This document shows positions 331 through 27,809 of a DNA stretch of 64,000 nt, in pieces (position 1 is the stretch's first letter; every line of letters starts with the position of its first letter). Source of the DNA: Branchiostoma floridae (taxonomy: Eukaryota > Chordata > Leptocardii > Amphioxiformes > Branchiostomatidae). The position numbers and the translations under genes are program-made. Below the pieces are notes generated by a model. The model did not search any database. It had not been told where the DNA came from and saw only the letters and a list, made by a program, of their open reading frames with translations. Where the stretch lies: contig NC_049989.1 in the NCBI RefSeq assembly GCF_000003815.2, positions 7,714,195 through 7,778,194 of the forward strand. Direction: 5' to 3'.

Positions 331-573
331 ATGGCAAAAGATCTGGTACAAAATGATTCACTTTCTGAACTGTTGGATATTCGACCCTTCCCTCAAACCA
401 ACCCGGAAAACCGGACCAGCAACTTGGATGTTTTAAGGGGTCACTTCATCCCTGATATGCCGCACTCTGACAGACAACGCGCAGAAATGGTCATGGGAAG
501 GAAAGAGTGTGTCATGCGAGTGGTTCTTGTCAGCGCTGTTATCGGGACATTCATTTTTGCCGTGCTCACATAG
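331..573 (+). CDS. Tail-anchored small protein, 80 aa, unrecognised
   Basis: An ATG-initiated frame of 80 codons. The first 55 or so residues are polar (SLSELLDIRPF, then a Pro/Asn-rich stretch). A basic MGRKECVMR stretch precedes one C-terminal hydrophobic segment (VVLVSAVIGTFIFAVL), and the protein ends one residue later. This is the layout of a tail-anchored protein with a cytosolic N terminus. A splice-acceptor-like AAAAGCAG ends exactly at the ATG. The stop is followed two bases later by a possible donor (AG|GTACTG), the same stop-next-to-donor arrangement as in the micropeptide exons downstream, so it may be an early member of that cluster. Known SERCA micropeptides such as another-regulin also have a polar head and a terminal membrane segment, but I see no shared motif. 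The function is unassigned. It could also be a chance frame; composition and context make a real exon more likely than not. Confidence 0.5.
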   Translation: MAKDLVQNDSLSELLDIRPFPQTNPENRTSNLDVLRGHFIPDMPHSDRQRAEMVMGRKECVMRVVLVSAVIGTFIFAVLT

Positions 574-575
574 AG

Positions 576-1418
576 GTACTGTATTGGAACAGTCATAGTT
601 TCAGTTAGTTATAAGGCCAACATTGGAACTCGTAATACCCATAGGATTTGAAACGACACTGCTAAATACCGACTTTAGTCCTTGGTGCCAGATGTTGTAG
701 ATTTGTGTTCTTCGCTAGTCTAGCCGTGTCCTTATGAATAATTCCATCCACCTATCTTGTCGTTACATATTTGATAAATTTCATCTACCTATAAAATGCG
801 CGCTAATGTTAATTTGGGCCTCTGATTGAAACCCCTTACTGTACCCACTGAAGCCGCGATTGGTTGCCTTGGGGGCCTTAGTCTTAGTTGTCTGCCGGGC
901 CGTAGTTCTACTATGTACGGTGTTCCATGGTATGCCCTTTGACTATCAGAACAGGTTTTGTCTCGATTTATACAATGATTTGTACGGTGTTTGAGCATTT
1001 AAGCTTACACACACTTGCCTTGTACTTCACAGCTTGGCTTTGGAATAACGTGAAAAGTGGAGCTATGTATATAGCACGTTAAAAACGTGCAATAGAATAG
1101 ATGGGCATTACTTCTACCGTACCTTTGTTCTCACTGACAAATAATTTAGACATTTCCACTTTCCGTTAAACTTGATAGAATATTGATATGAAATTATAGT
1201 TGACATAGCAAGTTCAAATTATGTTGCATGTCTTTATTTGCATTTGTTTTATTGTCATGTTTGGGATTGCAACACATCAAAAGTGGCTTTTATGCACATC
1301 ATTTTTGAAATTTCAGAAAGACTCGCAAAACCTAGCTTCTGCATGGCTTATAGATATAATTGTGCTTTGCTTCTGCTTGCAACTTAAGTCTATGCTTTTG
1401 CTCTTTTTTGCTTTACAG
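576..1418. other. Intergenic or intronic stretch, no gene seen
   Basis: I see no convincing coding exon here. A TATA-like GTATATAGCACG lies near 1066-1077 and a pyrimidine run leads into the acceptor at 1418, so part of this may be 5' flank or first intron of the gene whose coding exon begins at 1419. Confidence 0.4.
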
Positions 1419-1455
1419 AATTCGCTTTTAGCACAGATAAGCCGCTGCAGCAAGT

Positions 1456-1545
1456 ATGAGCATTGGCAACCAGGTTGTGAGCTTTTTCGCTGTTTGTGCT
1501 GGGCTTATGTTCGGCCTCTTCCTGGTCACGGTGGGCATGGTATAG
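1456..1545 (+). CDS. Single-membrane-pass micropeptide A1 (29 aa)
   Basis: A complete 29-codon frame that begins MSIGNQVV and ends TVGMV. From residue 7 on it is one hydrophobic segment, with no charged residue anywhere. It lies inside an exon bounded by a good acceptor (TTTGCTTTACAG, ending 1418) and a good donor (ACAG|GTAGGT at 1550); only four bases separate the stop from the donor. The 3' UTR is then in the exon starting at 1885. It is about half identical in protein to the copy at 5015, with identities at M, S, Q6, V7, V8, the GLMF block and the terminal G-x-V. The size and layout resemble sarcolamban-type calcium-pump regulators, which is inference only. It could instead act as a subunit or chaperone of another membrane complex. 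No promoter of the type found at 4221 was seen upstream. Confidence 0.66.
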   Translation: MSIGNQVVSFFAVCAGLMFGLFLVTVGMV

Positions 1546-1601
1546 ACAGGTAGGTGGCTTTCTTTCGCACGTTCCTAACGCTTACTGTGCACTTGCATAT
1601 T

Positions 1602-1652
1602 TACAAACACACAAGCACGCACGCACACGCATACACACACAGACATGCACAC
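1602..1652. repeat. CA-rich microsatellite
   Basis: Imperfect (CA/CG)n run of short ACAC and GCAC blocks inside the intron between the coding exon (ends 1549) and the 3' UTR exon (starts 1885). Confidence 0.7.
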
Positions 1653-1884
1653 GCAAACATCAGCAACAACGAACTAGCCAACCGACTAGACAATATGTCA
1701 GTAGAACATATAATCTCAAGGATACATGTAATTAATTTTACTGACTGTGCAGTCTGCATTTCACGTTGTACCTCGTTTTCCTTTCAGAGTATGCTGAGGG
1801 GATAGCTTCAAAGATTCAGTACAGGATAAGTTTTGACAAGCTTTAATTTGTAAAGATATTTTTGTTTTCTCTACCACACATTAG

Positions 1885-2720
1885 GGCAGCTGCATGCCAC
1901 GGTAGGAGCTTGCAGGAAGGATGGACGGTAGCTACAGACAGCAGGCCTGGGCTATGGACACCAAACACCAAGTCATCACATCCTCGGCGTCTTCACAGCG
2001 ACACCTATTGACTTCTGACGGAGCTGCTGTGATGGACGCTGACGTCAGAGCTGTTTGTTGGACATCGCCAACGTCGTTGATCCGTAGACACCTGCCACCA
2101 GTTCTGCCAACCTACCGGCTGTTGCTCTCCTGTTTATAGCCATCCCACTGTCGTTATACTTACGCTGCTGACTATTATTACTGATACTATGTGATAGTCA
2201 TCTTCTCTACACTAACAAACGCGGACGGGACATATGCTGCTTCTGCAAGAATTACATTTTGTATCCATTAAAGATTCCTCGTCACTACCAAAGCTGAAGA
2301 CTATATTGATGTCATGATGACATAAAACTCACTTTGGTTTTAAGTCACGTTGATGTCATCAGTCTTTGAGCTTTATAGTAGTCAGACTGTACCGTAATGA
2401 TGACGTAAACTTAACCATGAGATTTCGTCATGATATCGTAATGGTCGGCTGCACTCCACCAGTACTTTGCATTGAATGATAGCCGCTCGTTTGTGCCCAG
2501 ATTTCTTACAGACGTCACGTCACTGTGACATAATGTATGTTAACCTGACATTGTGTCTAATGTAATCGTTCAGTCTTTATGAAGTCTCGGGCCTGATGGA
2601 GACGTATTGTAGACTGACTCTATAGTCGTATTCACATCGTGTAAGCTACATGATTCTAGGCAAAGTTTTCCGGTCTTCTGTTTCCTTTGGTTCAAATAAA
2701 TCAAACTAACACGCTTGAAA
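1885..2720 (+). other. 3' UTR exon of micropeptide gene 1, with poly(A) signal
   Basis: The acceptor CTACCACACATTAG ends at 1884. The exon starts GGCAGCTGCATGCCACGGTA and is repeated, with high similarity, at 6007 and 11789. The AATAAA signal is at 2695-2700. A block at 2381-2541 is almost unchanged in the other two copies and contains short self-complementary pieces, such as CATGA...TCATG and GTCAC...GTGAC. The short open frames in this exon are not conserved and are taken as noncoding. Confidence 0.62.
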
Positions 2721-4220
2721 ACGTGTGTGCCAGTTTTTCTCTTGCAAATAATATAGTAAGGCATATCCACTGAATTCTAAATCGTGTGTATGCGCGAGTG
2801 AAAGAGAAATAGGTCGATCTAGTGAGTTACTTCTCAACACATTGCCTACAAACATACTATAAATTGCATCTATCTGTAATTCTAAAGATTCATACCCGAA
2901 AACATCAAATGAACGGCGTCGGAGACATAAGTTTCTCTACTTTGGTCACTCACTTACACACCGGTCCCATAGCCTCACCGGCCGTAGCTAGGGGCAGCAA
3001 TTCCATCAACATCTACTTTGGTCACCTTACATAAAAAAGTGATTGTAACAAACTACCAGACCATAGTTGTGACTACTATGTTATATAAATTAAGAAGGTC
3101 TCTTTAACTTCAGTCAAATCATATAAACCATATGTAATCTCAACATGGAACAGGTTTTGGTATTTGGACATTTTCTGAAGAGGGAACAGAACGACGCACA
3201 TCCACACGTAGTGTGTGAAGTCATCCATACTCAGCTTTGACAACTTGCCATTGTGGGCTTTATGTTAGCTTCCTTGACATACGTTACATCAACCATGGGC
3301 AATTTAAACTTAATTATTCACATTTACAGCAGGACTAGCAGTCAATCCCTTTCTTCAGATATTCCAACTTTTTATCGAACTGCCCTTCTCCTGTCTTTAG
3401 GCAAGTAGACAGCATCAAACACTCTAAACAAAAACTCTACATTGTCAATGGAGGAACTTATCCTGGTGAGAGGTTGTCCGAGGTTGTGGCAGGCAGGCCC
3501 GAAACCCGGCGTGTCTGGCGTGATGTGATCACCCTGCCCGATATTATGATAAACTGACGTAAGTTTAACCTTTTTGACTTTATTCCGTTTCGGCAAGTTT
3601 TCCCAAAAGAAAGTTGAGTCTTCGGACTTACTTTGAAAATTCTGTTTTTCTACACCAACAAAAAGGACTTATCCCGGTGAGAGGTTTTCCGATGCCATCT
3701 CCACGTCTTGCTGTACGGTGACGTCCAGAACGATCGATGTTCATGTAAAAGCCCTGCCAGAGGACTTGTTTGTCTTATGGGGTGTGAAATAAATGCCGAG
3801 GACTGGCTCTTGCTGGCAATGTAGCACGCCATGAGGAAATGGCCGCCAAAGTTCTCCCCTGGGAACCTGACGCGAAGAGAAAAAAGGGACGACCAAACCT
3901 GACACTTAAGACAGTATCGGAGGAGGAGGTCGGTATAAAGGACTACAAATTGCTAGCCGCCATGCTAGATAGAGATGTATGGTCGGACATCGTTATTAAT
4001 GGCACCTCATATGAGGATGAACTGAACTGATTGCTTATCATATATAAGTTATGTGCTAGGTACGTACCTCGTCATTCTCATATTTTTTAGTCAAGTTGGT
4101 CTCGTGTTGGTCTCGTCTTTGGGTAGTCCTCAACACTGTTACAGCACTTAAGATTTATGAATAAATAAATACAATAATTAACGACAGACTGAAATAAATC
4201 ATTTGACACCTTTATCGCTG
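2721..4220. other. Spacer with decayed retrotransposon sequence
   Basis: Mostly unrecognised. The motif ATCC(T/C)GGTGAGAGGTT occurs twice (around 3459 and 3669), which suggests an internal duplication of a degraded repeat. The only coding-like remnant is the retrotransposon piece at 3839-4030, listed separately. Confidence 0.4.
3839..4030 (+). mobile_element. Non-LTR retrotransposon remnant (end of reverse transcriptase ORF)
   Basis: The translated 63 residues contain WEPDAKRKKGRPNLTLK, then a KDYKLLAAMLDRDVWSDIV stretch. This fits the usual C-terminal tail of LINE polyproteins (W-x-P-x-G-K-R-x-x-G-R-P, followed by a D-R-x-x-W box). The part upstream, with the catalytic core, is absent, so this is a 5'-truncated or decayed copy. 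Confidence 0.6.
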
Positions 4221-4245
4221 GTGTAACCAGTTCTTTGGCATAAAG
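4221..4245 (+). promoter_or_regulatory. Shared promoter module of micropeptide gene 2
   Basis: Contains TAACCAGTTCTTTGGCATAA followed by AG. The same spaced blocks (TAACCA, about eight bases, GGCRTAA) occur at 8211, 9714 and 15980 ahead of other micropeptide genes. The CATAAAG part could serve as a TATA-like box: the first exon ends about 115 bases downstream at 4359. Confidence 0.5.
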
Positions 4246-4269
4246 TTAGACCCTGACCCTATTTTTTGG

Positions 4270-4359: not shown

Positions 4360-5014
4360 GTAAAACTACAGTTAGACTTTTATCATGAATATTCGTTTAC
4401 GTTGCGTTGTAGTAGTTTCATAAGTTGTAGAACAATCACCAAAGCTATGTTTACTGTTATTCAATAGAAGTGAATCTCTTTTGTTTTGTGTGCGCATGTC
4501 TTAGGAGACGTCAAGACAGAATTTATAGCATTGCGACTTGAAGTCGTAAACGACCATTTTGTGTCATCTCCTGGACAGAAGGTAGGTTTGAGTTGGTTTC
4601 TTTTCCCGAAAATATGACTTAAGTCAGTCACATTTTACAACAGCAAGGCAATATTAGTCCGTCTTAAGACGCACGAAGTCATGACATCTACCAGTCAAGG
4701 TGGTGTAGACCCTGATAAGTGGTAAAATGTAACAAGACTTAACAACGCAAGACAGCGCTAGCCCAGAGCAAAGGACGAAAGTTGTAACGTGTCAAATCAG
4801 CATCAGGTGTTGCGGTCTAACTACTGCAAGTTTGTAAAGCAAAAATATAAGGGCATAAGTTGTTGCTCAATATTTTCTTAACAGAATGTACTTTCTTTGG
4901 ATTTGATGTAGTTGGTTGAGTGCTATCATTTATATAAACCGTCAGAACCCTTCACTGTTGTAGAAAGCATACTTCAGAATCTATTTCTTTTCTACAGAAA
5001 TCGTCGTGACAGAG

Positions 5015-5104
5015 ATGAGTCTGAACATGCAGGTTGTCTGTGTGGTGGCGGTCATCGTGGGACTGATGTTCAGCGTCAAACTCATAATCATGGGGCTGGT
5101 GTAA
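5015..5104 (+). CDS. Single-membrane-pass micropeptide A2 (29 aa)
   Basis: A 29-codon frame that begins MSLNMQVV and ends MGLV. A hydrophobic core of about 22 residues carries one internal lysine (FSVKL), the only charge. The exon runs from 4998 (acceptor CTTTTCTACAG) to 5108 (donor ACAG|GTAAAA), four bases after the stop. It is 26 of 29 identical to the copy at 8773: the three replacements are M5I, I25T and a conservative context, and one serine codon differs silently (AGC/AGT). That pattern is expected if the frame is translated. Upstream lie the promoter module at 4221 and first exon ending 4359; downstream is the 3' UTR exon from 6007. The function is unknown; a role in regulating a membrane pump is the leading guess. 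Confidence 0.68.
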   Translation: MSLNMQVVCVVAVIVGLMFSVKLIIMGLV

Positions 5105-5640
5105 ACAGGTAAAAACCCTGTATCTAGGGATGTGCAATTAACCCACTTAGTGACTTACGCAGTTAATACACACGGTTTCAGTACCCACTGATCTTTCTCA
5201 CAAAGAAACATTGTCTCGATCGTCTCAAAATGCAACTGACCCTGCAAAGTCAAATCTACCGAAAATGATTGATATTGCCATGCGGAATGTTAGTAAATTC
5301 GTCGACACAGACTTGTACTCTAACACCTTCCTTTTCTACCGCCTAAAAGACCCTGTCAGGAACTAAAAATTCTCGCAAACTACAAATTCAAACTTGGCAC
5401 AGGGTGACATATTGTATGGTCGCACTAGGCAGTGTTTCTGTGTCGGGACCAGAAATCGTGTGGTCGTGGCCGCGTTGGACAGGTGGCTGCTATAGACTAT
5501 TTCTTAATGCTTAGGCCAATGGGAAAAATTAAAGGGACCGACAAAAACTGACCGCAATGGCCAGGTGGCCGCTATGCAAAGGTGGACTCTAATACAGGTT
5601 TGACTGTATCAAGGACGTTCATATAACGTCCTTGACTGTA

Positions 5641-5860: not shown

Positions 5861-6006
5861 ATTCTTGTACTTTTTACTGACTAGTAGACGGGTTTTACTT
5901 TGTACCGTTTTCTTGTTCCATAGGCATCAGAGGTTCAGTACAGGTTGTCTCGTTTTGCCAAAGTTCAAAGTGTAATTAGCTTTTTGTTTTCTGTTCCACA
6001 CCTTAG

Positions 6007-6785
6007 GGTAGGAGCTTACAGGAAGGATGGACGGTAGCTACAGACAGTGGGCATGGGTTATGGACACCAATACCAAGTCATCACATTCTAGACGTCTTCA
6101 CAGCGACACCTATTGACTTCTGTCGGAGCTGTTGATCCGTAGATACGTGCCATCAGTTCTACCAACCTACCAACTGTTACTCTCCTGTTAATAGCCAACC
6201 TACTGTCGTTATACTTACCTTGAATGTCTCTCACCAATATCTACTGATACTATGTGGTAATCATCTTCTCCATACTAACAAATGCGGACGGGACATATGC
6301 TGTTGCTACAACCATATTGCAAATATTGTCTCCATTCAAGATTAGTCGTCATTACCAAAGCTGAAGACTATATTGATGTCACGATGACATAAAACTCACT
6401 TTAGTTTTAAGTCACGATGATGTCATCAGTCTTTAGCTGTATAGTAGTCAGACTGTACCGTAATGATGACGTAAACTTAACCATGAGATTTCGTCATGAT
6501 ATCGTAATGGTCGGCTGCACTCCACCAGTACTTTGCATTGAATGATAGCCGTTCGTTTGTGCCCAGATTTCTTACAGACCTCACGTCACTGTGACATAAT
6601 GTATGTTATCCTGACATTGTGTCTAATGTAATCGTTTAGTCTTTATGAAGTCTGGGGCCTGATGGAAACGTATTGTAGACTACCTCTACAGTCGTATTCT
6701 CATCGTGTAAGCTACATGATTCGAAGCAAAGTTCTCCTGTCTTCTCTTCCCGTTGGTTCAAATAAAGCAAACACGCTTGAAAACG
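6007..6785 (+). other. 3' UTR exon of micropeptide gene 2, with poly(A) signal
   Basis: Acceptor TTCCACACCTTAG ends at 6006. The exon lacks the first dozen or so bases of the gene 1 and gene 4 versions but otherwise follows them, with the strongly conserved block at 6447-6607 and AATAAA at 6761-6766. Confidence 0.6.
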
Positions 6786-6789
6786 TTTG

Positions 6790-8200
6790 AGCCAGTCATT
6801 CTCAAGCAAATAATCTAGTAAGGCATATCCACTGAATTCTAATGTGTATGAGCGAGTGAAATGGAAATGGCTCGATCTAGTGGGTTACTTCTCAATGCCT
6901 ACAAATATGCATCTATCTGTAACTTTAAAGAATCATCCCCGAAAACATCAAATGAACGGTCACCGAAAACATATGTTTGCCTTCGTAGGTAATACATATT
7001 CACTAACCAGTGAGTCCATAGTTGTGACTACTAGCTTAAATCATGGAGGTTTATTTAACCTCCTCGGTTAAGTCATGTAAACCAGCGATTACACGTGCAC
7101 GAGGCTGGGTTGTTTGTATCTCAGCATGGAACAGGTTTGGGAGTTGAACATTTTCTGAAGAAGGCCAGAACGACGCAAACATCCACACGTTATTTGCAAA
7201 TTCATCTTGCCATATAATGGCGAGCTAGCTTTGATAACTTGCCATTGTGGCTTTTAAGTTAGCTTCCTTGACATTCGTTATATCAAACATGGATAGTTTA
7301 CACTTAATTAGTCCCATTTACAGCATGGATAGCAGCTTCATTTGCATGGAATCAACACTCCTTGCCACAGAGAGGCCTGGAGCCAGCGCACCCACTGTCC
7401 GTTCAGAAGATGGGAGGAGTAAATTCAATACGTGAAGAATTTCTGCTCGGGGGTCTTTCAAATTGATGGACAGCCACTGAATCGAGTATGGCATGGCTAC
7501 TGGTTTGCATTCCTATTTTGACGGGCCTTTCTCGCCTTTCTCTTCGCCTCGACGGCTGCAACCCTCTCGGTCTCGAAGGTTGACACGGTGGGGTTGGTCA
7601 GCTGCCGCAATGCATTGCGATTAGAACATAGTTTTTCAAGATTTACTGGGTCAATATGTCCCTTCTTCAAGTTATGTTTCAGAGTGTCCTTATATCTCTT
7701 TCTCTGTCCACCCCTTGATGTGGGCGTGTCCCTTGATACAGTTGGCCAAACAGAATCTGTTATATCTGGCACTCGGACACAGTGACCGGTCCATCGTAGT
7801 TGGCTGCGCATAATAAATGCCTCTATGCTACAGGAGCCAGCCCCAGCTAGCACACTTTCAAAATTAAAAGCATTGTGGTTTACACTAATGTTTGCAGTTA
7901 TCTACTCACAGTCAAATGCACTGTGATGATGCCAGGCAGGCTAAAACAGCTAGCTACAAAGCTACACATCTCGAACAGCCAACACGTTTTTGCCTGTCAG
8001 AGCGGTTTCAATCTTTATAAGTAAAAAAAAAACACTCTGAAATCATTCAAACAAGCCTTACAATTTAACCTCTGACCCTTCTAACCAAAACAAGGGATGA
8101 CCTAGTATTTTGTTTTCATTTGATAAACAGCTTAAGGGACGACCCTTAAGATTAATGAATGGAAAGGGAACTTATCTCCTGTTTGTAACCATTACACCTT
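6790..8200. other. Spacer between micropeptide genes 2 and 3
   Basis: The left part repeats sequence that also follows the gene 1 poly(A) site (compare CATCTATCTGTAA and CATCAAATGAACGG near 2865-2914 with 6909-6957), so the duplicated unit extends past the transcript end. The only coding-like remnant is the retrotransposon tail at 7497-7853. Confidence 0.45.
7497..7853 (-). mobile_element. Non-LTR retrotransposon remnant (reverse transcriptase C terminus)
   Basis: The minus-strand frame of 118 residues reads SIEAFIMRSQLRWTGHCVRV, then RGGQRKRYKDTLKHNLKK, then a basic KRKARKARQNR end. The LRW-x-GH-x-x-R block followed by RGGQ(K/R)-x-RYKD is typical of the part downstream of the polymerase domain in RTE/CR1-like LINE proteins, often annotated as 'craniofacial development protein 2-like'. 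No polymerase core is present, so it is a dead 5'-truncated copy. Confidence 0.72.
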
Positions 8201-8210
8201 TATCACTGGT

Positions 8211-8232: not shown

Positions 8233-8772
8233 ATTATCCCCGGATGCTACTTCTTACATACCAGGGCATCTACGTTTACACTAACTGCTCGCGGAATTTA
8301 CAGGTAAAGCTACAGTTAGACGTTTGTCAACAAATATTCGTTTATATTGTAGTAGTTTTGTACGCTGTAGAACAATTCTGTTTCCTGTTATCCATTCGAT
8401 CAATAGAAGTAAATCTCATTTGCTTTGTGTGCGCATGTTTTTGGAGACAGAATTTATAGCTTGGCGAATTGAAGTTGTAATTGGGGTAGGTTTGAGTTGT
8501 TTTCCCCCCAGACGTATATCAGCCACATTTTACAGCACCAAGACACGATTTCATGATATGTACCAGTCAAAGGTGTTCCAGATGTTGCGGGTCCAATTAC
8601 TGCAAAGTTGCAAAGCAAAGATATAATGACAGCGTGGTTCTACATTTTCTTACAACAGAAAGTACTTTCGTTTGATTTGATGTAGTTGGTTAAGTTCTAT
8701 CATTCCGCAACCTTTCACCGTTGTTGAAAGCGTACTTCCGAATCTATTTCTACAGAAGTCGTCGTGACAGAG

Positions 8773-8862
8773 ATGAGTCTGAACATTCAGGTTGTCTGTG
8801 TGGTGGCGGTCATCGTGGGACTGATGTTCAGTGTCAAACTCATCACCATGGGGCTGGTGTAA
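8773..8862 (+). CDS. Single-membrane-pass micropeptide A3 (29 aa)
   Basis: Begins MSLNIQVV and ends ITMGLV, close to the 5015 copy. The exon runs 8756-8866 between acceptor CTATTTCTACAG and donor ACAG|GTAAAA, four bases past the stop. The promoter module (8211) and first exon end (8303) are in place upstream. The matching 3' UTR exon found in genes 1, 2 and 4 is missing from the next 2.4 kb; a retrotransposon piece (8960-9166) occupies part of that space. The transcript may therefore use the terminal exon at 11789, or another one I cannot see. The single internal lysine of the 5015 copy is kept. Confidence 0.66.
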   Translation: MSLNIQVVCVVAVIVGLMFSVKLITMGLV

Positions 8863-8959
8863 ACAGGTAAAAACTCGTATCTAGACGTCAGAACTAGTTT
8901 TAACTAGTACAGAACCCTAGATCACTATCATTTTTTGTGACATGATCAAAGAATTGTTT

Positions 8960-9166
8960 CTAGAGTATCCGCCTTTTTATGACGTTAAGTATTGTTCTAT
9001 CCACTCCCAGCCTTTCTATTATATAAACAGAGTCTTTTATGCGATGGCCAGTCCGTAGTATCTTCCTGTAGCACTTCATCTCCAAGGCCTGGATTCTGCG
9101 GCTGTCACTGGCGTGTAGAGTCCATGACTCATAGTCATAGGTTACCACACAACACGGACAGTGCAT
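8960..9166 (-). mobile_element. Non-LTR retrotransposon remnant (reverse transcriptase tail)
   Basis: The minus-strand frame contains YDYESWTLHASDSRRIQALE followed by MKCYRKILR. This matches the widespread Y-G-x-E-x-W-T-L...RRIxAFEMxCxRxxLR block of LINE polyproteins. It is a short decayed piece that lies just downstream of the coding exon of micropeptide gene 3. Confidence 0.68.
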
Positions 9167-9708
9167 TCTGTTTAGTGGCTTGTCTTGAGGGCCCTGTCAG
9201 TATCCCAAGTTCTTGAGTTCAGACGGCTGCACGAGCTGTTCCTAGGCGTATACTGACAGCTACAGCTATTTGTTTGGCTATCTGTTCTATTGTGGGCACG
9301 ACGTACTTAGGTCCTGAGACCTGTTTTAGTTGTTCGTATCGTCATGTGACTGTTACTTGAATGGGTCCCTTGGTTACAGCCATTATGTATACAGTCTTCC
9401 AAAAAGTGCCCCTAATTGTCATGCACCTCGTGACCAATTACTGGTAATTTACTTGCACAAAACACTGAAATGTGCATCGTTAGGTCATTGCATCCACAGT
9501 TTTCAAAATATCATAAATCAAAACATGCCAATCTTGTTGGGTTTAACTTTCTGGTGGCCTGTGTGACGTTCACCCTGAGTACTATCCAGATACGTTAAAC
9601 TGTTGAAAATTTCCATCAAATTACGAACAGACTACTGTTGTTACATATGCAAAAGGCTATTATCTCATTCAGTCTGTTCATTCGTGATTCGGTTGACATC
9701 ACCATCAT

Positions 9709-9747
9709 CGGTTTAACCAGTTTTTAGGCATAAAGGCAGCTCCGGGT
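9709..9747 (+). promoter_or_regulatory. Shared promoter module of micropeptide gene 4
   Basis: GGTTTAACCAGTTTTTAGGC followed by ATAAAGGCAGCTCCGG. The first exon that follows ends at 9804 with GCTCGCGGAATTGACAG and donor GTAAAA. The spacing from CATAAAG to this exon end is about 70 bases. Confidence 0.5.
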
Positions 9748-10850: not shown

Positions 10851-11377
10851 ACAGCAGCTGTTCATACAACACATCTTCAATAGTTACAAACATTTACAAG
10901 CCTGTACATTAGGAACTTTGCAAAGGAGGTGAACAGAAAGCTTCACCCCTGGGACAGATGACGCAATGATTAATGATGAACAAATGTTAATTCACAAATT
11001 GCCTAGGATTGCAATGATTTTTTACGTAAATATGTCACAGTACAGATGGAATCCATGCAGAAAAGAATTCGGAATTCTTCTATGGGGAGATTGGAATCTT
11101 ACCAAAATGCCAAAGAATCCTCTGTTGGATTATTTGTTTGTAAAGTTGGCTAAAGACTTAGCTACTGTTTTACCCTAGAGAGTAGTTTATAGCATATTTT
11201 TAACATCCAAGTTTCAGAAAAAAATGATAATACCTCCTAGATTCCAATGTCTAGTGTCACAAATACACCACATATATTTCTAGCTACATGCACAACAAAA
11301 GAAGCAATGCATTGCTTGACTGACTTGTTTTCTTCCCCTTTTCAGAGGAAACAACAACAAACACCGCAGCAGAAAGT

Positions 11378-11476
11378 ATGAAAAGTTTGAACATAAACAA
11401 CCAAGCCGTCTGCTGTATTGCGGTACTTGTGGGACTGGTGTTCAGCTCGTTCCTCATCACCATGGGGCTGGTGTAA
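11378..11476 (+). CDS. Single-membrane-pass micropeptide A4 (32 aa)
   Basis: Begins MKSLNINNQAV, with three extra residues before the shared Q, and ends SSFLITMGLV. The exon is 11346-11487: acceptor TTCCCCTTTTCAG, donor TCTAAG|GTAATA eleven bases after the stop. Gene 4 has the whole set of parts: promoter module 9709, first exon end 9804, coding exon, and 3' UTR exon from 11789 with AATAAA. It is diverged from genes 2 and 3 at the N terminus and in the core (CCIAVLVGLVFS versus CVVAVIVGLMFS) yet keeps the LITMGLV end. This argues for purifying selection on the membrane segment. Confidence 0.66.
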   Translation: MKSLNINNQAVCCIAVLVGLVFSSFLITMGLV

Positions 11477-11788
11477 ACAAATCTAAGGTAATAAGGCCTT
11501 TTCATCACAAAGTGATCGATTGTACGACGACGAAGATTCCAACTAGGCCAGATGTTTATCAGTGCGTGTGATTTGCATAATGCACAAGTCTTTTGTTCGT
11601 AGTCTTCTTCTCCTGCATTTTATAAATGGAAGTGCAATTGTACTTGCAGGATTCATGTACCTTTTTTACTGACTGTGTAGTTTCTTTCTACTTTTCACTA
11701 AGCGGGTAGAGTCCATGGATATCAAAGGTGGAGTACAGGTTGTTTCATTTTGCCAATTTGTAAACAGGTTTTCTCTACCACACCTCAG

Positions 11789-12775: not shown

Positions 12776-12779
12776 AAAC

Positions 12780-14280: not shown

Positions 14281-14376
14281 AAGATTGTTTGGGGGAAGAT
14301 TTTTGAAAACGTTTCAGTTCTGTTCATTGTGCTCGGCGCCTTTGGGGTCGTTTGGGCCTTCGTGGTTATGATGTGA
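14281..14376 (+). pseudogene. Family B micropeptide copy lacking a start codon
   Basis: In frame from 14281 it reads KIVWGKIFENVSVLFIVLGA, then FGVVWAFVVMM and a TGA at 14374. Alignment with the intact gene at 16248 (DKILENFSVL...GVVWAFIMMV) puts AAG where the other has its ATG. There is no in-frame ATG between the stop near 14208 and this segment. A donor-like GC|GTAAGA follows at 14384, seven bases after the stop. It is either a copy that lost its start, or an exon whose start lies in an upstream exon spliced to the CTTTTTGCCTGAG acceptor-like site at about 14276. The membrane segment itself is well kept, which makes the second reading possible. Confidence 0.5.
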
Positions 14377-16247: not shown

Positions 16248-16343
16248 ATGAATGGTCTGGATAAGATTCTCGAGAACTTCTCGGTGTTGTTAATCGTGCT
16301 CGGCTCGGTTGGTGTCGTGTGGGCCTTCATTATGATGGTGTGA
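16248..16343 (+). CDS. Single-membrane-pass micropeptide, family B (31 aa)
   Basis: Begins MNGLDKILENFSVLLIVLGS and ends VWAFIMMV. A short amphipathic, charged head (D5, K6, E9) precedes a hydrophobic segment of about 21 residues. It differs from the MS-x-x-x-Q family, but the related copy at 14281 shows a family of at least two. A single conserved W sits in the membrane segment. The 3' splice structure is unclear: only weak GT sites follow the stop, and an AATAAA lies at 17046-17051. The charged head plus single helix resembles sarcolipin/sarcolamban topology more than the charge-free family A does; that is an analogy, not a homology claim. Confidence 0.62.
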   Translation: MNGLDKILENFSVLLIVLGSVGVVWAFIMMV

Positions 16344-17665: not shown

Positions 17666-17669
17666 AATT

Positions 17670-19790
17670 GACAATTTACCTTGTTTCAAGTAAATATCTA
17701 CCACCCGCATGTGTTCTAATAGACACCAACTGTCCTATCTTGTACTATTACTTGTCTGTCGTGTGTCTTCCCATGATTTGTTAGTCGCGTGCATGATTTT
17801 GAGTTTGAGTTGTCTGCCGTTACTGGTGCATGATAATCACCTCCAAATGTCAGACCAGTACACGTGTGTGCCGGGTGTTTCACATGTTGCTAGAATCTAA
17901 GTTCAATGTTTCCACTAAACGTTAAAGAGACCCTACATAATGTCACTAATGTTAAATCTAGGTATCTTTATATCATTGCTTTCTAACACTGTGCTCATTG
18001 TTGTTGTTTGTCTATGATTATTGCGTTCTGTCTTGGTCCTATTAGTGTGGGAAAACCATTACAAGTGTAACAATAAACCGTGAATCGAGAGCTAGAAGTG
18101 TAGATTTTAAATGACGACTGTTATCTGTCAGGATATCTGAGTGTTATTGTCCTTCGCTAATCACTAAATGGTGCTGGATTACTATTGATGGTCACTGAAC
18201 CTTTGAAGGCCTGGTGTCTATTTGGCATATGTTTGGGCACTACATCGATGAAGGTTAGACGTCCAGGTAATAAATTAGGTAAACGCCAGGTAAACGTAAA
18301 AAATAGTTACTCATTCTGATAAGCAACTGGAAATCATATCCAGTAGCTTGAGTAACTTGCAAAAATCATATCCAGTTGCTTGAGTAACAGTTGCTGCTTT
18401 TTGGCGTTTGGGCACTATACTGCTGAGCCCCTGTGCTGAGCGAAATATTTTTTTTGTTCACAGGAAAGACAGTAGTGTCAAGTTATCAACTAATTTTAAC
18501 GCCACCACATGCGTATCTAAAACAGCAAACTTGTAGAACTGTCTAATGAATAGTATCTACTATTTCATATGTATCTAATCAATATATTTGTATCTAACAT
18601 TTTCTCCTTTACTCGATACTTGCTGAATACCAAAGACATCTTTGCCGTGATTTCTGGATAGATGACAATGGCGAAAGGTCAATAAAGCTTGCGAAAAATC
18701 CAGCATGAACCTGTTATATCCAGTTTATAATTACATGGTGTGGATGCCATTCCAAGAAGTAGGGTTTATAAAACAATGGCGACCTTTGTGGTCTTTCAAC
18801 ATGCCCCGATGTCCCCAAGCATGCTTATGATGCTGCTTTGTAAATACCTTTCGGAGCGGAAAGTGCATTGGTGCATAGGATGCGATGCCCGTAGCGTAGA
18901 GGGTGCTGGAATGTAGAACCGCCATGAAATCATAACATCTCGACTCAGGTGATGATATAATGAACTTTTATCCATATTTTCTTATCGCGGCGTCAAAGCT
19001 GTTAGATAGAGGTAAAGGCACTCCCACAGCCTTTAAGGTTGAGGCCATAGGAGCGGTCTGTTTGAAGTCCATTCTGTCCCGGGCATCGCATAGGGAGGAG
19101 GAGCTAATCATGTGTCCACTATCTTTTACCTGCTACCCCCCCCCCCCCCCCTCACAACCGAGTCACGGAATCCATCGTTACAGATGGCTGGTGAAAGAAA
19201 AGTTACGTCAACACATATCGCTGTATACTTAAGATACATATTTCATTTAAATGTAGAAAACAAGACTCTATGAATTCAGATTGCCCCTTTCGCCAAGGCG
19301 CACTTGTTATTGGACACACACACAATGCACGAATATCAAATGCCCCAGCCATACTCATAGGGCCTAGGGCTTTTAAGGTCCATTACCCCTTTCCATGCAT
19401 AGCTGCCTTAAATTTTGACTCATCAATTCTCCCCATTTGGTCGATGGCTTAGGGTCTGGTACTCCTCAGGACGAAACTTCCCGTCATTTCTTCACCTTAG
19501 TTTAGACAGTGTATTTCAAAACATGTCATTCATCGGATATCTATTTATAGTCGCTTATCAATAGAAATCCGTGACAGGTTTTCAAGTCTCCTACTGGTAA
19601 ATTATATAGGAGGAGATATGGCCAGGGATTGTCTCATAACTTCTCTCATTATTTTTAGACGAAATATGATTGCATTGATTCATTAAAAAAAACAGAGCTC
19701 ATTTCTGTTAAGTACAAGTGAAGGTACTGGAAATAGTGAGCTTCTGATGCAAATGCATTCAACTTTTTTGTACTCTCCTGTTTCAAAGTA
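17670..19790. other. Spacer without recognised genes
   Basis: No convincing coding exon. It contains the hairpin repeat at 18236-18400 (listed separately) and a poly-C run at about 19136-19152. Confidence 0.35.
18236..18400. repeat. Dispersed hairpin repeat with CAACTGGATATGATTT core
   Basis: Contains AAGCAACTGGAAATCATATC and CATATCCAGTTGCTTGAGTA in inverted and direct arrangement, plus GAAGGTTAGACGTCCAGGTA. The same parts occur in reverse at 36967-37075 (CTCAAGCAACTGGATATG and CCTGGATGTCTAACCTTCAT). The two sites are copies of one short mobile or foldback repeat. Confidence 0.55.
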
Positions 19791-19791
19791 T

Positions 19792-20111: not shown

Positions 20112-20216
20112 ATGAACGCAACAATGCGTCCTTGTACACTGCGCGAGAAGCTGCTATTCGTCCTTGCGCTTGCCGTGGCCTGTATCTTCATCTTAATGGC
20201 ATCTCCTTTCATGTGA
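20112..20216 (+). CDS. Single-membrane-pass micropeptide, singleton C (34 aa)
   Basis: Begins MNATMRPCTLREKLLFVLAL and ends ILMASPFM. A basic, polar head (R6, R11, E12, K13) leads into a hydrophobic segment of about 19 residues. A second ATG is at codon 5. A weak donor (CCAAAG|GTTTGT) lies 13 bases after the stop, and a good acceptor (CTTTACTTGCAG) at 20862 opens a possible 3' exon with AATAAA at 21378. This follows the gene architecture of family A, though the peptide is not related in sequence. A signal-peptide-like frame arising by chance cannot be excluded. Confidence 0.45.
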   Translation: MNATMRPCTLREKLLFVLALAVACIFILMASPFM

Positions 20217-22043: not shown

Positions 22044-22130
22044 ATGTCCATCGGCAATCAGGCGGTCATCCTTGTGGCCATACTGGTCAGCCTTTTTTAT
22101 GTAGTCCCGTATCTTATTATGATGCTGTGA
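22044..22130 (+). CDS. Single-membrane-pass micropeptide A5 (28 aa)
   Basis: Begins MSIGNQAVILVAILVSLF and ends PYLIMML. It has no charged residue at all. The MSIGNQ start is the same as in the 1456 copy, 20 kb away, which ties the left and right groups into one family. A proline enters the last third of the segment; this is shared by all four right-hand copies. A strong donor (GTCG|GTAAGT) lies at 22155, 24 bases after the stop, and the start of the intron (GTAAGTACACTTAAGTATGT) resembles that of the 23110 copy. I could not fix the acceptor; TTGTATTGCAG at 21835 is a candidate. Confidence 0.65.
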   Translation: MSIGNQAVILVAILVSLFYVVPYLIMML

Positions 22131-23109
22131 CGCACCCCTGGCGTCCGAGTGTCGGTAAGTACACTTAAGTATGTCGCCAGTCTTACGAAACGCCATCATG
22201 CTGTAATACATTTTTACAATACTGCAGATTAGATCTACCATGTAGAAAGATTATGCAGCCTCATGAAATACCGGAGAAGTCATCCATTTAAAAGGCCAGT
22301 CAGCTTTCAGAGAGAAAAACAGCATAGAGATAGTCGCACGTATGTGCGGCTGCAACGAGAACGCTCATTCGTTTTACAATGGTGCCTTTATACAAAATGG
22401 CAACAGTCAAAGGAAAAACAAGATAGAAATGACTTGGTACTAGATAAGTGGGGCGGGGATAGACTTAATACTTGACAAAGGTGAATAGTCTGTTACTTTT
22501 AATGCATTCATATTCTACGCTCTGCGTTTTGGTACAAGTCCTATCTGAGCGTACTGATTTATTCATGACATACTGCGAGGGCTAGCTTGCTGTAAGCCAC
22601 AATAGAATAGAAATAGGTCAATCTTTAAAGTCTATGTCTGTACATTGTCAGGTGTATCAGCATGCCTTAAATTAAAAGTATGTACAGTGTCATTGTACAC
22701 GGACAGATGACAAGATGTAATTTTGTTCGGATTCAGTCAACAAACTTAGCTTCTTATTGGTTCTCCAGCATGTAGCACTTTCACATTAACCTTGAGTAGC
22801 TATTCCATCGTAATCTACGGTCTTTCCACGCTTAAATGCACACAAATATATTCATATATTCAAGTATGTTATATAGTAGTCCTTGATCTATTTGATTGCC
22901 GAAGCATGAAATCATTAAGGTCTACTTTTCGCCAGACGTTATCTATTGTTTGCAACGACCGGTTGTTCCACTTCTAAAATTCAACTCTCTAGTAGCACTG
23001 GATTCTGGGATACGTGCTTCCATCACGTCACAACAGTCGTTACGTAAGGTTGACTATACTTTAAAGCCGACTTTACGTTGTTCGTACTTCGTAGCTCAAC
23101 GTAAGAAGA

Positions 23110-23196
23110 ATGTCTCTTGGTAACCAAGCGCTTATCTTGGTGGCTGTACTCGTTGGGATTTTCACTTTGACACCGTACCTGATCACCATGCTGTAA
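23110..23196 (+). CDS. Single-membrane-pass micropeptide A6 (28 aa)
   Basis: Begins MSLGNQALILVAVLVGIF and ends TPYLITML. It is charge-free, the closest relative of the copy at 22044, and its LITML end echoes the LITMGLV end of the left-hand group. The exon ends at 23231 with donor GCCG|GTAAGT, 35 bases after the stop. The following intron shares a TTATGTCGCCA-like stretch with the 22044 gene, so the duplication included intron sequence. The acceptor may be the GTACTTCGTAG at about 23091. Confidence 0.66.
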   Translation: MSLGNQALILVAVLVGIFTLTPYLITML

Positions 23197-23231
23197 CGTC
23201 ATGCCAAGGACTTAACGGACTGGCCTTGCCG

Positions 23232-24030: not shown

Positions 24031-24039
24031 CAGAAGGAT

Positions 24040-24318: not shown

Positions 24319-25190
24319 CCGCCTCTCAAAGTCTCTTCTCTCAAATTCTGTTATTGAATTATCATTGAATTTTCACGGAAAACGCTAGACTTGACAGTGT
24401 TGTCGATGCTTAAAATAAAAGACTCAAGGATCTGTATTGATTTTGTCTTCCTCCGCAATTTTCATTTCCTAAAGTCGAAATTTCCCTTGCGGTAAGGGTA
24501 GAATTCGGGCACGTACGAATAACCTTAGAATAGAAAGACGGCATTTCTGAAGTAAGCAGAAATCTTTTTTTCCTCCCTAACACAAACGGAAAGAAGAGCC
24601 ATGACTAAGGATCGTACTTTTCTTTACTGCTTATGGGAACAGTTTCTGTCATAATCCACCTCGATATTTGCGCAGGCCAAGGCACAAATATTTAAATGCT
24701 TTATCTCGAATCGGCACCGTGAACGAAAAGTACAACATAACACGCAGATAAACACACAAAACGTGAAATAATGAGTTATGATCATAATTTGTACATTTGT
24801 AATTCTTGCTTTCACTTTATTTTTCCTACGCGTAAACGGCCAATCGGGCCATTTGGAATTCTGGCCCTGGCAATAGTGGGTGGTGCTTGGTACCGCACGA
24901 AGACTGGTTCTACATGCCCGCGGCCCGGAGAGAGAAAATTTAATGTAAATACATGCATTGCCTTTGGCGCAGAGTTTGTTTTGATCCACTTCAACGAACG
25001 TACCTGCCCTTTCACCCTTAATGTCACTGACAGGGTCACAGAAGATGCGCTCACTGCTGAACCGGTTGTACAACTCTTAATCAACACACACACACGCCTT
25101 GAATTTACAATTGACTAGTGCTATTTGATTACCGCACGTGTCGCACAAGACACAAATTATCGAGAGAGAAAAACAATCGTGTTGTGGAGT

Positions 25191-25280
25191 ATGATCGACC
25201 ACGGCACGCAGTTTGTGGCCATTCTGGCTTGCATCTTCAGTTTTACTTGGCTTGTGCCATTCGTCATAACTATCATATAA
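25191..25280 (+). CDS. Single-membrane-pass micropeptide A7 (29 aa)
   Basis: Begins MIDHGTQFVAILACIFSF and ends PFVITII. It keeps the invariant Q (position 7 here), the A-x-x-x-x-x-S pattern and the late proline of the right-hand group, with one aspartate and one histidine in the head. The stop codon is followed by a single G and a strong donor (AAG|GTAAGG at 25282), the tightest case in the window. The 3' UTR exon is probably 26011-26925. Open frames of 100-150 codons overlap here on both strands but show no conserved features. Confidence 0.64.
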   Translation: MIDHGTQFVAILACIFSFTWLVPFVITII

Positions 25281-26010
25281 GGTAAGGGTAGTGTATAGAT
25301 GTTGGGAGGAAATTTTTTCGTTTCTTTCCACCCTACATCTGCTTGGAGATTCAGGTTGCAACCGTATACGTATCTCGTACATCTCTATTGTTTATCATTT
25401 TATATATAGGGACGTTATACATAATTGCATTTCAATTGCAGTACATGACGCTGATAGCCACAGCAAAATGATACGTGCCGCAAGTTTTGACGATGTTTGG
25501 ATTTATGTACGTGCAGTAGTTGTCTACTTGTTCTGTCATGTGTATGATGCGAAAGCGAGTATTAGTACGAAAATGCTGCAGTTGCATTGCACTGTATTGT
25601 TTTGTGTTTATACTGTTTGCTAGATACTAACTTTCTGTGGCTGAATCATTTTGACGCAATTATCATCGACGCTTTTTAAAAATCATTTCCAAACCACCTT
25701 CCAAAAGTCGCCATGAGTAATTTGAGGACATGAGTGAAATGGGCTATCCTGAAACAGTAGGAGCCAACAAAATTCAAGATGATTAGTAACATTTACTTTG
25801 TGTGAAACGTTCATCACATGCCTTCATACAGCCCATCATTAGCATTTTCTAAATCAAACTTCAGTCTTAATTTAGAATTAAGAAAAATCCATTCAAACTT
25901 CTGCTTTAAAATCTTCAGAACTGTATCTGGTATCAGCTAACTATCAAATCTGTTGTTCTACTCTTATCTGACGAAATTCATTTATGGTTTTGTGTCTATG
26001 TCTCTGATAG

Positions 26011-26925
26011 GCCCCTTCTGAAGGTCGACGAGGTCATCAAGAAACATCATGGTGGCCTCCGTGGCGTTCCGTACAACCGATGATAGCAAAGACGTCGACG
26101 CTTCCAAAGGCTTGCCATCACCGCACCTCCTTGCCTAGAAAACACAACAGGAATACACAACAGTAACTCCTTCTATGGACTCTCGGTGATAGAATCCTTG
26201 TTATCAGATCTACATGTAAGGATATAGACAACCTGTGCACCAGAAACATCCAGCTTCATCCGTTGGTTCTTCCGACACCTCATCTCGCTTTATCATGGAG
26301 ATCACCTACCATTGGCTCTATCAGGAGGCATCATCATCTGGTCGTTACAAGGATGAACACGACTCTATCCGGAGTACGTGGCACAATAGGACTTGCAATT
26401 GGGGAAACATCCATATCTGTTAGAAAAATATACTAAACATCATTTTCCATAGAAATATTGGAGGGCAAGGTATACTTTAAGTTGCTGCTAGATTAGATGC
26501 CATTTGCCATGAGTATTTTTTTGCTAGTCGATTTCTACACTCGCTTTTTCCTTCAATAAGCGATGTTGTAGTTTGTTTGGGTTGTTTCATCCATCGTTAG
26601 GTATATCTCTCATATGCCCTCAGATTGAAACGTTTGATGGCAACTGAGAGATTATGATATATGTGACTTGTTTCATAGTTGCTTGAAGTCAGTCCATGAC
26701 AAAGTCGGACTCACTTCAAATATCTATGAATTTGGTCTTAGTGCTCTTCTTGCTGACGAATATGACGATATGTAATATCGTTTTCAAGAAGACAGTTTCA
26801 ACCTGGCATCCTGGTTTTACAGTTCCTTTGTAGAGATGTGAAGCAGAGGATGCTAGGTTACCCTACTACTCGATGAATGGAATAGGTTGATCTAAATATC
26901 TGAATAAATACAACATTGGTTCAAC
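26011..26925 (+). other. Candidate 3' UTR exon of micropeptide A7
   Basis: Acceptor GTCTATGTCTCTGATAG ends at 26010, and AATAAA is at 26903-26908. No frame in it looks conserved. Confidence 0.4.
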
Positions 26926-26983
26926 TTTCAACTTTTAACGCTTAGTTGTCTCATTTTATTAAAAAATTAGAGGTCCAAAACCA

Positions 26984-27099
26984 GGTTTCATCTCCATACA
27001 TTGTAGCATTTTATTATCTCCAGATATGGTATCACTTCATCAGCTTCTGTTCTTTTAGTGAGAAGATGATGAAGTGATGCAATATATGGAGATGAAACC
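26984..27099. repeat. Imperfect hairpin, about 116 bp
   Basis: GGTTTCATCTCCATACATTG at the left pairs with CAATATATGGAGATGAAACC at the right, and ATCACTTCATCAGCTTCT with AGAAGATGATGAAGTGAT inside. It could be a small foldback element or encode a hairpin RNA. Confidence 0.6.
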
Positions 27100-27722
27100 T
27101 TATTGTACCACTTTATTATCTTCTCGCTCAAAATAACAAGTGTTATCCAAATTATAAAGGTATTAAAAATAGGTTGTTCTAAAGTTTCCTCGTCAATTAT
27201 GCAAGGGGTCGTGATTTGGATAATTAATTTATGTTTAACGCGATGTTCATAAATACTTCGATCTGTCAGCCCTTTCCTGAGTTATCTTCTTTCAAAACAT
27301 GTGGTTCCAAAACAAGTTGCTGGTGGATCACGCGTATGTAGTATCTACCACTCCAATATTGTGGTCTTTTAAAAGATATAAAAAACCGAATGATAATATA
27401 ACTACAATACCATGATAAGCCACAAGGGAAGCAATCTAATTATAATTATTTCAAAGTCACATTAAGACACATTTACATATATATACCAGACATCAAGAAA
27501 ATCTATCGAAGCCTTCTAGACTTGTGGTGTTTACAGACTGACAGACATGACCTGCATGGGGTCAAATGACGATGAAGGTCATTGGAAAGTTGTTGATCAA
27601 CTTACGTCGAAGTATCAAATGCCTTTCATTTGGCCGTTGCTGGTTCATCTTTACCAAGAACCTCCAGTCTTGGGGAACACTTAAGGCAGATTTAAAGACG
27701 ACAAACAACGATTTCTAGGACC

Positions 27723-27809
27723 ATGAGTATCGGGACGCAGGCTGTCGTCATTCTGGCGTGTGTCGTGAGCTTCATGTGGTTCATACCCATGATCATACCC
27801 TTCATTTAA
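27723..27809 (+). CDS. Single-membrane-pass micropeptide A8 (28 aa)
   Basis: Begins MSIGTQAVVILACVVSFM and ends PMIIPFI. It is charge-free, has two prolines in the last third, and is related to the 25191 copy (ILAC-x-x-SF block). A donor-like ACAAG|GTGGGG lies ten bases after the stop. It is the rightmost clear member of the cluster; beyond it come 2 kb without genes and then a large transposon. Confidence 0.64.
   Translation: MSIGTQAVVILACVVSFMWFIPMIIPFI

What the first reader, a model, noticed from the sequence alone, without database searches (positions are those of the whole stretch)
331..27809. A cluster of single-membrane-pass micropeptide genes
At least nine intact frames of 28-34 codons (1456, 5015, 8773, 11378, 16248, 20112, 22044, 23110, 25191, 27723 minus any that fail testing) and one start-less relative (14281) lie on the same strand in 27 kb. 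Each encodes almost nothing but one hydrophobic helix. Most line up with splice sites, and related copies differ mainly by conservative changes. Standard gene finders with a 100-codon cutoff would miss all of them. Known animal peptides of this size and topology (sarcolamban, sarcolipin, phospholamban, DWORF) regulate the SERCA calcium pump, so a lineage-specific family of pump or channel regulators is one attractive hypothesis. No sequence motif seen here proves it.
Basis: partly seen in the sequence, partly recalled or inferred. Interest (0 to 1): 0.92.

Follow-up and report, generated by a model that had tools for sequence, protein, structure and literature searches.

The report
Tandem array of one-helix microprotein genes
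A 31,000-base stretch of an amphioxus-like chromosome carries about 16 tiny genes, each making a protein that is little more than one membrane-crossing helix, and natural selection appears to have preserved those proteins although gene finders with a length cut-off would overlook them.

Summary
All ten listed frames are present at the stated coordinates. Twelve strongly hydrophobic small ORFs (two of which I do not count as members) lie on the + strand of 1-28 kb against 0.37 per dinucleotide shuffle, and none on the minus strand. Eight form one homologous family; silent sites are more changed than replacement sites in 27 of 28 pairs. Copies of one exon carried off by a transposon drift neutrally, pN/pS 1.20. 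Twelve of 17 frames have a good splice donor within 35 nt after the stop, against 4 of 114 control ORFs. The array continues left of the window: five more frames on C11 give 17 sequences in about 31 kb, 16 with an ATG. The 80-codon frame at 331 probably starts at 487 (28 codons). SERCA-regulator membership is not supported: phospholamban and sarcolipin profiles find nothing over cut-off genome-wide, and 1 of 17 peptides shows their signature. I favour helix-packing subunits or regulators of an unidentified membrane protein. No transcript or second species could be tested.

The parts
487..573 (+). probable 28-aa member (MVMGRKECVMRVVLVSAVIGTFIFAVLT), inside the 80-codon frame 331-573
   Evidence: aligns without gaps to the 28-aa peptide at C11:7713009 left of the window, 7 of 28 identical; z 7.7 for the last 33 residues of the frame; weak donor, 3.0
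1419..1549 (+). coding exon, CDS 1456-1545 (29 aa, core family)
   Evidence: acceptor score 8.2, donor 10.1 four nt after the stop; profile E 1.5e-12
4582..4587 (+). candidate donor of an upstream leader exon of the 5015 gene (conserved counterpart at about 8486)
   Evidence: conserved GGTAGGTTTGAGTTG between the two copies; inferred
4998..5108 (+). coding exon, CDS 5015-5104 (29 aa, core family)
   Evidence: acceptor 6.4, donor 7.2; CDS+stop 86/90 identical to the 8773 copy without gaps, upstream DNA 0.813 with 15 gap runs
8756..8866 (+). coding exon, CDS 8773-8862 (29 aa, core family); its surroundings 8564-10155 also occur in a transposon
   Evidence: acceptor 4.0, donor 7.2
11346..11487 (+). 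coding exon, CDS 11378-11476 (32 aa, core family)
   Evidence: acceptor 9.4, donor 6.8
14281..14376 (+). ATG-less relative of 16248 (KIVWGKIFENVSVLFIVLGAFGVVWAFVVMM); its stop overlaps a possible donor GAT|GTGAGC
   Evidence: phmmer E 2e-7 with 16248; 18 of 31 aa identical; donor overlap
16248..16343 (+). 31-aa peptide MNGLDKILENFSVLLIVLGSVGVVWAFIMMV; carries [LI]xxNFx4I
   Evidence: donor 6.8 at +26
20112..20216 (+).
   Evidence: donor 5.5 only; no purine at -3
22044..22154 (+). CDS 22044-22130 (28 aa, core family) to its donor
   Evidence: donor 8.8 at +24; pS 0.80, pN 0.21 against 23110
23110..23231 (+). CDS 23110-23196 (28 aa, core family) to its donor
   Evidence: donor 10.4 at +35
25191..25281 (+). 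CDS 25191-25280 (29 aa, core family) to its donor
   Evidence: donor 11.3 at +1; pS 0.68, pN 0.30 against 27723
27723..27819 (+). CDS 27723-27809 (28 aa, core family) to its donor; right end of the array as far as the window shows
   Evidence: donor 8.6 at +10; no further profile match below E 0.03 in the window

Best explanation
This is a tandem array of about 16 small protein-coding genes (11 ATG frames in the window, 5 just left of it, plus one ATG-less relative at 14281). Each encodes a 25-35 residue protein consisting of a short start and one transmembrane helix. Each peptide is complete within one exon whose stop codon usually lies just before a splice donor, so the rest of the mRNA would be 3' UTR. 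The array grew by local duplication and copies were then kept by purifying selection on the protein. Mechanism (inferred): the helix inserts in a membrane and packs against a partner helix, either itself or a larger multi-pass protein, through a small-residue face. In all eight core members Q6, A12 and G/S16 (core numbering) are kept. A and G/S four residues apart form a small-xxx-small packing motif, and Q6 sits where the helix begins. The paralogues would then be interchangeable subunits or regulators of that protein. Shown: the frames, the family, the constraint between copies, the splice-donor excess, the predicted helix. Inferred: transcription, membrane, partner and role. My confidence is about 0.9 that most are real coding genes and about 0.45 for the helix-packing mechanism.
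For: 12 hydrophobic sORFs against 0.37 expected, one strand only. Eight-member profile E 6e-16 to 1.5e-12, next window match 0.03 (the eight built the profile). pS exceeds pN in 27 of 28 core pairs. 22044/23110: 30 differences split 9/3/18 by codon position, 19/28 aa identical, 0 of 20,000 random placements as good. Transposon copies of the same exon: pN/pS 1.20. Donor after the stop 12/17 against 4/114, 12/20 with the dropped rows. Purine at -3 in 14/16 against 48/117, P 8e-4. CDS 95.6% identical without gaps inside an 81% identical, gapped surround. Q6, A12, G/S16 in 8 of 8 with varying codons. AlphaFold2 of the 11378 peptide with the other seven as alignment: one helix, residues 6-28, mean pLDDT 90.8.
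Against: No transcript, ribosome or peptide data. No second species. The core set was partly chosen by hydrophobicity, which itself favours conserved second codon positions. 5015/27723 has pN above pS. 5015/8773 has too few differences (P 0.25), and 25191/27723, 1456/11378 and 14281/16248 give only P 0.005-0.014. Several core pairs taken alone are weakly similar (for example 5015/25191 z 1.9, 11378/27723 z 2.3). Transposon against array copies give pN/pS 0.30-0.73, a mix of both histories. The 3' exons were not found. 14281 has no ATG. 331/487 and 20112 have weak donors. AlphaFold2 on a short hydrophobic peptide gives a helix almost by default. The packing motif is read from eight paralogues only.
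Confidence: 0.6

Rival explanations
1. SERCA regulators: the peptides, or at least 16248/14281, bind the calcium pump like sarcolipin, phospholamban and sarcolamban and tune its calcium affinity.
For: Same size and topology. 16248 matches [LI]xxNFx4I, which of six known regulators tested only SLN and PLN match; the chance that any of 17 shuffled peptides matches is 0.018 (0.003 with block shuffles). The Asn is kept in 14281. The best shuffle z for 16248 is 3.5, to PLN. That alignment test has low power: true regulator pairs such as SLN/DWORF or SLN/MLN reach only z 0.6 and 1.4.
Against: Only 1 of 17 matches the signature, and the motif was chosen after seeing the peptide. Across 119 comparisons the best z is 4.1 and the mean 1.1. 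No phospholamban or sarcolipin match over cut-off in the genome, none of the 13 and 5 weak ones on C11. PDB profile searches return no regulin. Among the core eight only 11378 (Lys) and 25191 (Asp) have a charged residue in the first 15 (His not counted), and no peptide has an SLN-like RSYQY tail.
Confidence: 0.11
2. Alternative first exons or uORF exons of a larger downstream gene: the hydrophobic frame is a leader peptide or a regulatory uORF.
For: The frames are followed by donors, 12 of 17 have no good acceptor, and all lie on one strand, as in arrays of alternative first exons. The 14281 and 16248 stops overlap possible donors, so those two could read on into another exon.
Against: The in-frame stop lies before the best donor in the others, and the best donor inside the ORF is 4.0 or less in 13 of 17 (the exceptions are 1456 at 6.3, 22044 at 5.3 and the two just named), so a signal-peptide exon would be cut off. 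Conservation of the peptide itself is more than a uORF needs. A shared downstream exon was not searched for.
Confidence: 0.12
3. One polycistronic transcript that strings several micropeptide exons together, as in Drosophila tarsal-less/polished rice.
For: Five of 17 exons are framed by an acceptor and a donor, with little besides the ORF between.
Against: Twelve of 17 lack a good acceptor. Units 5015 and 8773 each keep their own candidate upstream leader donor. Spacing is up to about 5 kb.
Confidence: 0.08
4. Transposon-derived or chance frames without function.
For: The region is repeat-rich and one unit exists inside a TIR transposon.
Against: Family diversity lies in the C11 array and the transposon copies resemble one unit. 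Transposon copies drift neutrally while array copies do not. Twelve frames against 0.37 expected.
Confidence: 0.05

Closest known systems
Sarcolipin (31 aa) and phospholamban (52 aa)
   Same: one-helix microproteins; 16248 shares the L/I-N-F-I spacing; coding part in a single exon (recalled)
   Different: no profile or sequence homology; here many tandem paralogues and a donor right after the stop; no RSYQY tail
Sarcolamban A/B (Drosophila, 28/29 aa)
   Same: same length and topology; two related peptides from one locus (recalled)
   Different: 16248 meets the looser spacing [LI]xx[NTQ]Fx4[ILF], which any of 17 shuffled peptides meets with chance 0.15-0.18; the core family does not meet it; best z 4.1 for 1456 among 119 comparisons is not compelling
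OST4 (37 aa oligosaccharyltransferase subunit)
   Same: tiny N-terminal tail, Gln at position 6, one helix (human sequence recalled)
   Different: the genome's OST4 frames are on C2 with a polar tail; nothing in the array matches the profile
tarsal-less/polished rice and other animal smORF genes
   Same: short coding frames missed by length cut-offs
   Different: those peptides are polycistronic and not transmembrane helices (recalled)

Membership tests
SERCA regulins (PLN, SLN, sarcolamban, MLN, DWORF) | single-pass membrane peptide under about 60 residues | tested here: met
   hydropathy of the frames and helix prediction for one peptide
SERCA regulins (PLN, SLN, sarcolamban, MLN, DWORF) | sequence homology to phospholamban (Pfam PF04272) | tested here: not met
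   0 matches over cut-off in the genome, none of the 13 weak ones on C11
SERCA regulins (PLN, SLN, sarcolamban, MLN, DWORF) | sequence homology to sarcolipin (Pfam PF05366) | tested here: not met
   0 matches over cut-off in the genome, none of the 5 weak ones on C11; hmmscan of all 17 peptides against Pfam found nothing
SERCA regulins (PLN, SLN, sarcolamban, MLN, DWORF) | Asn with Leu/Phe/Ile at fixed spacing in the helix | tested here: inconclusive
   1 of 17 (16248) meets the strict SLN/PLN form; MLN and DWORF themselves do not
SERCA regulins (PLN, SLN, sarcolamban, MLN, DWORF) | binds SERCA in ER/SR and alters calcium affinity | not testable with these tools
   needs biochemistry
OST4 | match to Pfam PF10215 | tested here: not met
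   two of 12 matches over cut-off, both on C2; none of the 12 on C11
conserved protein-coding microprotein family (general kind) | homologous ORFs with silent changes in excess of replacements | tested here: met
   27 of 28 core pairs, random-placement tests, neutral control
conserved protein-coding microprotein family (general kind) | conserved in another species | not testable with these tools
   no other animal genome is held
conserved protein-coding microprotein family (general kind) | transcribed and translated | not testable with these tools
   no RNA or proteomic data

The most novel reading that the evidence does not exclude
An animal gene family made only of single helices: about 16 interchangeable 25-35 residue membrane helices in one array, diversified like a receptor cluster, that assemble with one multi-pass membrane protein or with each other to set its properties. 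One member gene was picked up and spread by a DNA transposon.
Probability: 0.35. Interest if true: 0.82.

Novelty: new variant of a known kind. Interest (0 to 1): 0.64.

Why it matters
The one-helix microprotein genes that I know of (recalled) are single genes or pairs found one at a time. An array of about 16 with internal paralogues allows constraint to be measured without expression data, gives a natural mutagenesis series of one helix, and shows how short-ORF arrays can escape a length cut-off. If the peptides share a partner, the array could reveal how an invertebrate chordate tunes a pump, channel or transporter. The transposon copies provide a built-in neutral yardstick.

Tried and rejected
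Rejected: chance frames. OST4 family, a lead I took from Gln6. Phospholamban and sarcolipin families (I read five of the eight fetched sub-threshold phospholamban matches and by eye none looks like a phospholamban; the five weak sarcolipin matches were not read). Signal-peptide exons. Muscle-type promoter sites: MEF2 8 sites in 32 kb against 11 in 63.8 kb, CArG 2 against 3, nothing to build on. Two hydrophobic ORFs in the window (17940, 24778) and one at its left edge (-18) were dropped as members: best donors 2.3, 4.4 and 4.6 and no profile match in the window-wide or left-flank scans; they were not used as queries themselves. Similarity to recalled SLN, PLN, sarcolambans, MLN, DWORF and OST4 by shuffled alignment was not decisive.

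Led nowhere: literature. Searches were amphioxus + micropeptide (2 papers), at least three of sarcolamban/phospholamban/sarcolipin/amphioxus (14; none holds amphioxus), amphioxus + small open reading frame (9), Branchiostoma + SERCA + sarcoplasmic reticulum (4), Branchiostoma + microprotein (5, 4 listed), at least three of tandemly duplicated/micropeptide/transmembrane/smORF (64, 20 listed) and Branchiostoma floridae assembly terms (208, 8 listed). No listing names this array. I saw passages only of PMC8805411, PMC8396278, PMC10188112 and PMC9338278, and listings with abstract starts of the rest. Not being in this open-access subset does not prove it unpublished.
Full report
Where it lies. The window is G000:C11:7714195-7778194 in a genome of 513,431,437 bases and 431 contigs. 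Positions left of the window are given on C11.

Is it there? Yes. ORFs of 24-45 codons with a 19-residue hydropathy maximum of 2.3 or more number 12 on the + strand of 1-28 kb and none on the minus strand. The remaining 35.4 kb has one and none. In 200 dinucleotide shuffles of 1-28 kb the mean is 0.365 and the maximum 2. Two of the twelve, 17940 and 24778, have no good donor and I do not count them.

Family structure. A profile of eight peptides (1456, 5015, 8773, 11378, 22044, 23110, 25191, 27723) scores all eight at 6e-16 to 1.5e-12 in the six-frame window, and the next match is 0.03. These eight built the profile, so the gap is the informative part. Shuffle z-scores between 16 of the 17 peptides (8773 left out as a near copy of 5015) place 14281 with 16248 (11.0), and the peptide at C11:7713009 with the end of the 331 frame (7.7) and with C11:7713666 (5.8). 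Neighbouring core pairs score 8 to 13, but some distant core pairs only 1.9 to 3.5 or less. Peptide 20112 stays without a convincing relative (best z 4.1; phmmer nothing below E 1 besides itself).

The array is longer than the window. In 40 kb fetched to the left the same screen (cut-off 2.2) finds frames at C11:7711106 (25 aa), 7711670 (26), 7712408 (35), 7713009 (28) and 7713666 (32), all on +, each followed within 33 nt by a donor scoring 9.0 to 12.3. A sixth, at -18, has only a weak donor (4.6) and is dropped; two more hydrophobic frames, one on each strand, lie 11 and 32 kb to the left and were not followed up. The frame at 331 has 80 codons, but its last 28, from an ATG at 487, align without gaps to the 28-residue peptide at 7713009, with 7 of 28 identical. 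I take 487 as the start. With 487 and 14281 included there are 17 sequences, 16 of them with an ATG.

Coding constraint. pS exceeds pN in 27 of 28 core pairs. Leaving out the young pair 5015/8773, pS is 0.39 to 0.84 and pN 0.21 to 0.54; the exception is 5015/27723 (0.39 against 0.46). The clearest pair, 22044/23110, has 30 differences split 9/3/18 over codon positions and 19 of 28 residues identical. None of 20,000 random placements of 30 differences kept the frame open with as many identities. The six other pairs tested gave 0.0005 (22044/27723), 0.004 (5015/11378), 0.005 (25191/27723), 0.011 (1456/11378), 0.014 (14281/16248) and, with only four differences, 0.25 (5015/8773). Choosing hydrophobic frames favours stable second positions, so these values are somewhat flattering. 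Around the pair 5015/8773 the CDS with stop is 86 of 90 identical without gaps, while 801 columns upstream are 0.813 identical with 15 gap runs. For 14281/16248 the DNA match covers only the coding stretch, and for 22044/23110 and 25191/27723 blastn at 1e-3 finds no DNA match at all, so nothing but the peptide is visibly kept.

A built-in neutral control. The 8773 exon with its surroundings (window 8564-10155) also occurs inside a dispersed element on C8, C9, C12, C18, C2 and C152, with a further copy on C7 and four partial matches that stop before the exon. Its ends are inverted repeats (GAGGGTCTGCATG), and 4 of 5 elements with both ends read show a matching 6-base duplication beside them as I read the printed flanks; C18 does not match, and the right end of the C8 element was not located. 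I read it as a TIR transposon that captured one unit of the array; the direction is inferred from the family's diversity lying in the array. Of seven exon copies, four keep ATG and frame over the full length, C18 starts with GTG, C2 has a TAG at codon 6, and for C7 only 20 codons aligned. Among the six full-length copies pN/pS is 1.20, as expected without selection, on few changes (pS 0.044, pN 0.053). The same exon thus looks unconstrained when mobile and constrained when in the array. Comparisons between array and transposon copies give 0.30 to 0.73, a mix of the two.

Gene anatomy. A donor of score 7 or more in the 45 nt after the stop is found in 12 of 17 peptides and in 4 of 114 control ORFs (P 3e-10), or 12 of 20 with the three dropped rows (P 4e-9). 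The donor and acceptor scores rest on textbook frequencies that I recalled. An acceptor of score 4 or more before the ATG is found in 5 of 17 (C11:7713009, 1456, 5015, 8773, 11378; leaders of 17-37 nt) and in 7 of 117 controls (P 0.008). Purine at -3 is found in 14 of 16 against 48 of 117 (for the 331 frame its first ATG was scored, as a miss; 487 has G). Upstream of 5015 and 8773 a GGTAGGT donor is conserved about 416 and 270 nt before the acceptor and may end a leader exon. The model is: leader exon in some members, one coding exon, stop, donor, and 3' UTR exon(s) not identified. In 14281 and 16248 a donor-like site overlaps the stop, so these two might read on.

How it probably works. The peptides are one helix with a minimal tail; AlphaFold2 predicts helix 6-28 for the 11378 peptide at mean pLDDT 90.8, which is weak evidence for such a sequence. 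In the core family Gln6, Ala12 and Gly/Ser16 are kept in 8 of 8 with varying codons. The A-x3-G/S spacing is that of small-residue helix packing (established knowledge), and Q6 sits where the helix begins. The most likely role is packing against another helix in a membrane, as subunit or regulator. The partner is unknown.

Comparison. Pfam has no family for any of the 17 peptides. PDB searches with one peptide and two profiles return no regulin and no OST4. Phospholamban and sarcolipin: nothing over cut-off in the genome. OST4: two strong matches on C2, none here, which also shows that the search finds 34-position helices. Only 16248 shows the SLN/PLN spacing [LI]xxNFx4I, with a chance of 0.018 over all 17 peptides under full shuffling; this was noticed first and tested after. 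Searches of the genome with six single peptides found relatives only in this array, apart from the transposon copies and one E 0.6 match on C2 inside a 108-codon frame. These single-peptide searches also miss most distant members of the array itself, so they do not exclude remote relatives elsewhere.

Verdict. A real array of one-helix microprotein genes that extends beyond the window; I saw no annotation of this genome and cannot say whether any is annotated. The pump-regulator idea is one possible role, best for 16248, not shown. What remains open is expression, orthologues and the partner.

Noticed in passing
window 8564-10155 and G000 C8, C9, C12, C18, C2, C152, C7 (L030-L035, L044): A TIR transposon (GAGGGTCTGCATG ends, apparent 6-base target duplication in 4 of 5) carries about 1.6 kb of the array including the 8773 exon; the copied frames evolve neutrally.
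   Followed up: partly
L045 (G000:C2:24173612-24174311): Two OST4 frames about 210 bases apart on the same strand, both over the Pfam cut-off, each with a Met before SDVQLAIFANM.
   Followed up: no
window 1805-2934, 5924-6978, 11589-12999: About 1.1-kb segments downstream of three peptide exons are 74-82% alike although the neighbouring peptides differ heavily at silent sites; later insertions or gene conversion.
   Followed up: no
window 31246-32368; 51355-51903; 54806-55183: Minisatellite-like repeats that keep several frames open (repeated LLTCTVSYLVCNQRKYT-like and MKPAPLRPLILATGRGLHHARL-like units).
   Followed up: no
window 55296-55775 (-) and 58049-59737 (+): Neighbouring genes: a helix-loop-helix frame (E 4e-8) and a protein kinase frame (E 8e-68); I think of Mlx and ERK5/MAPK7, recalled, not tested.
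   Followed up: no
window 17940-18017, 24778-24876: Two further hydrophobic small ORFs without a good donor; probably chance.
   Followed up: partly
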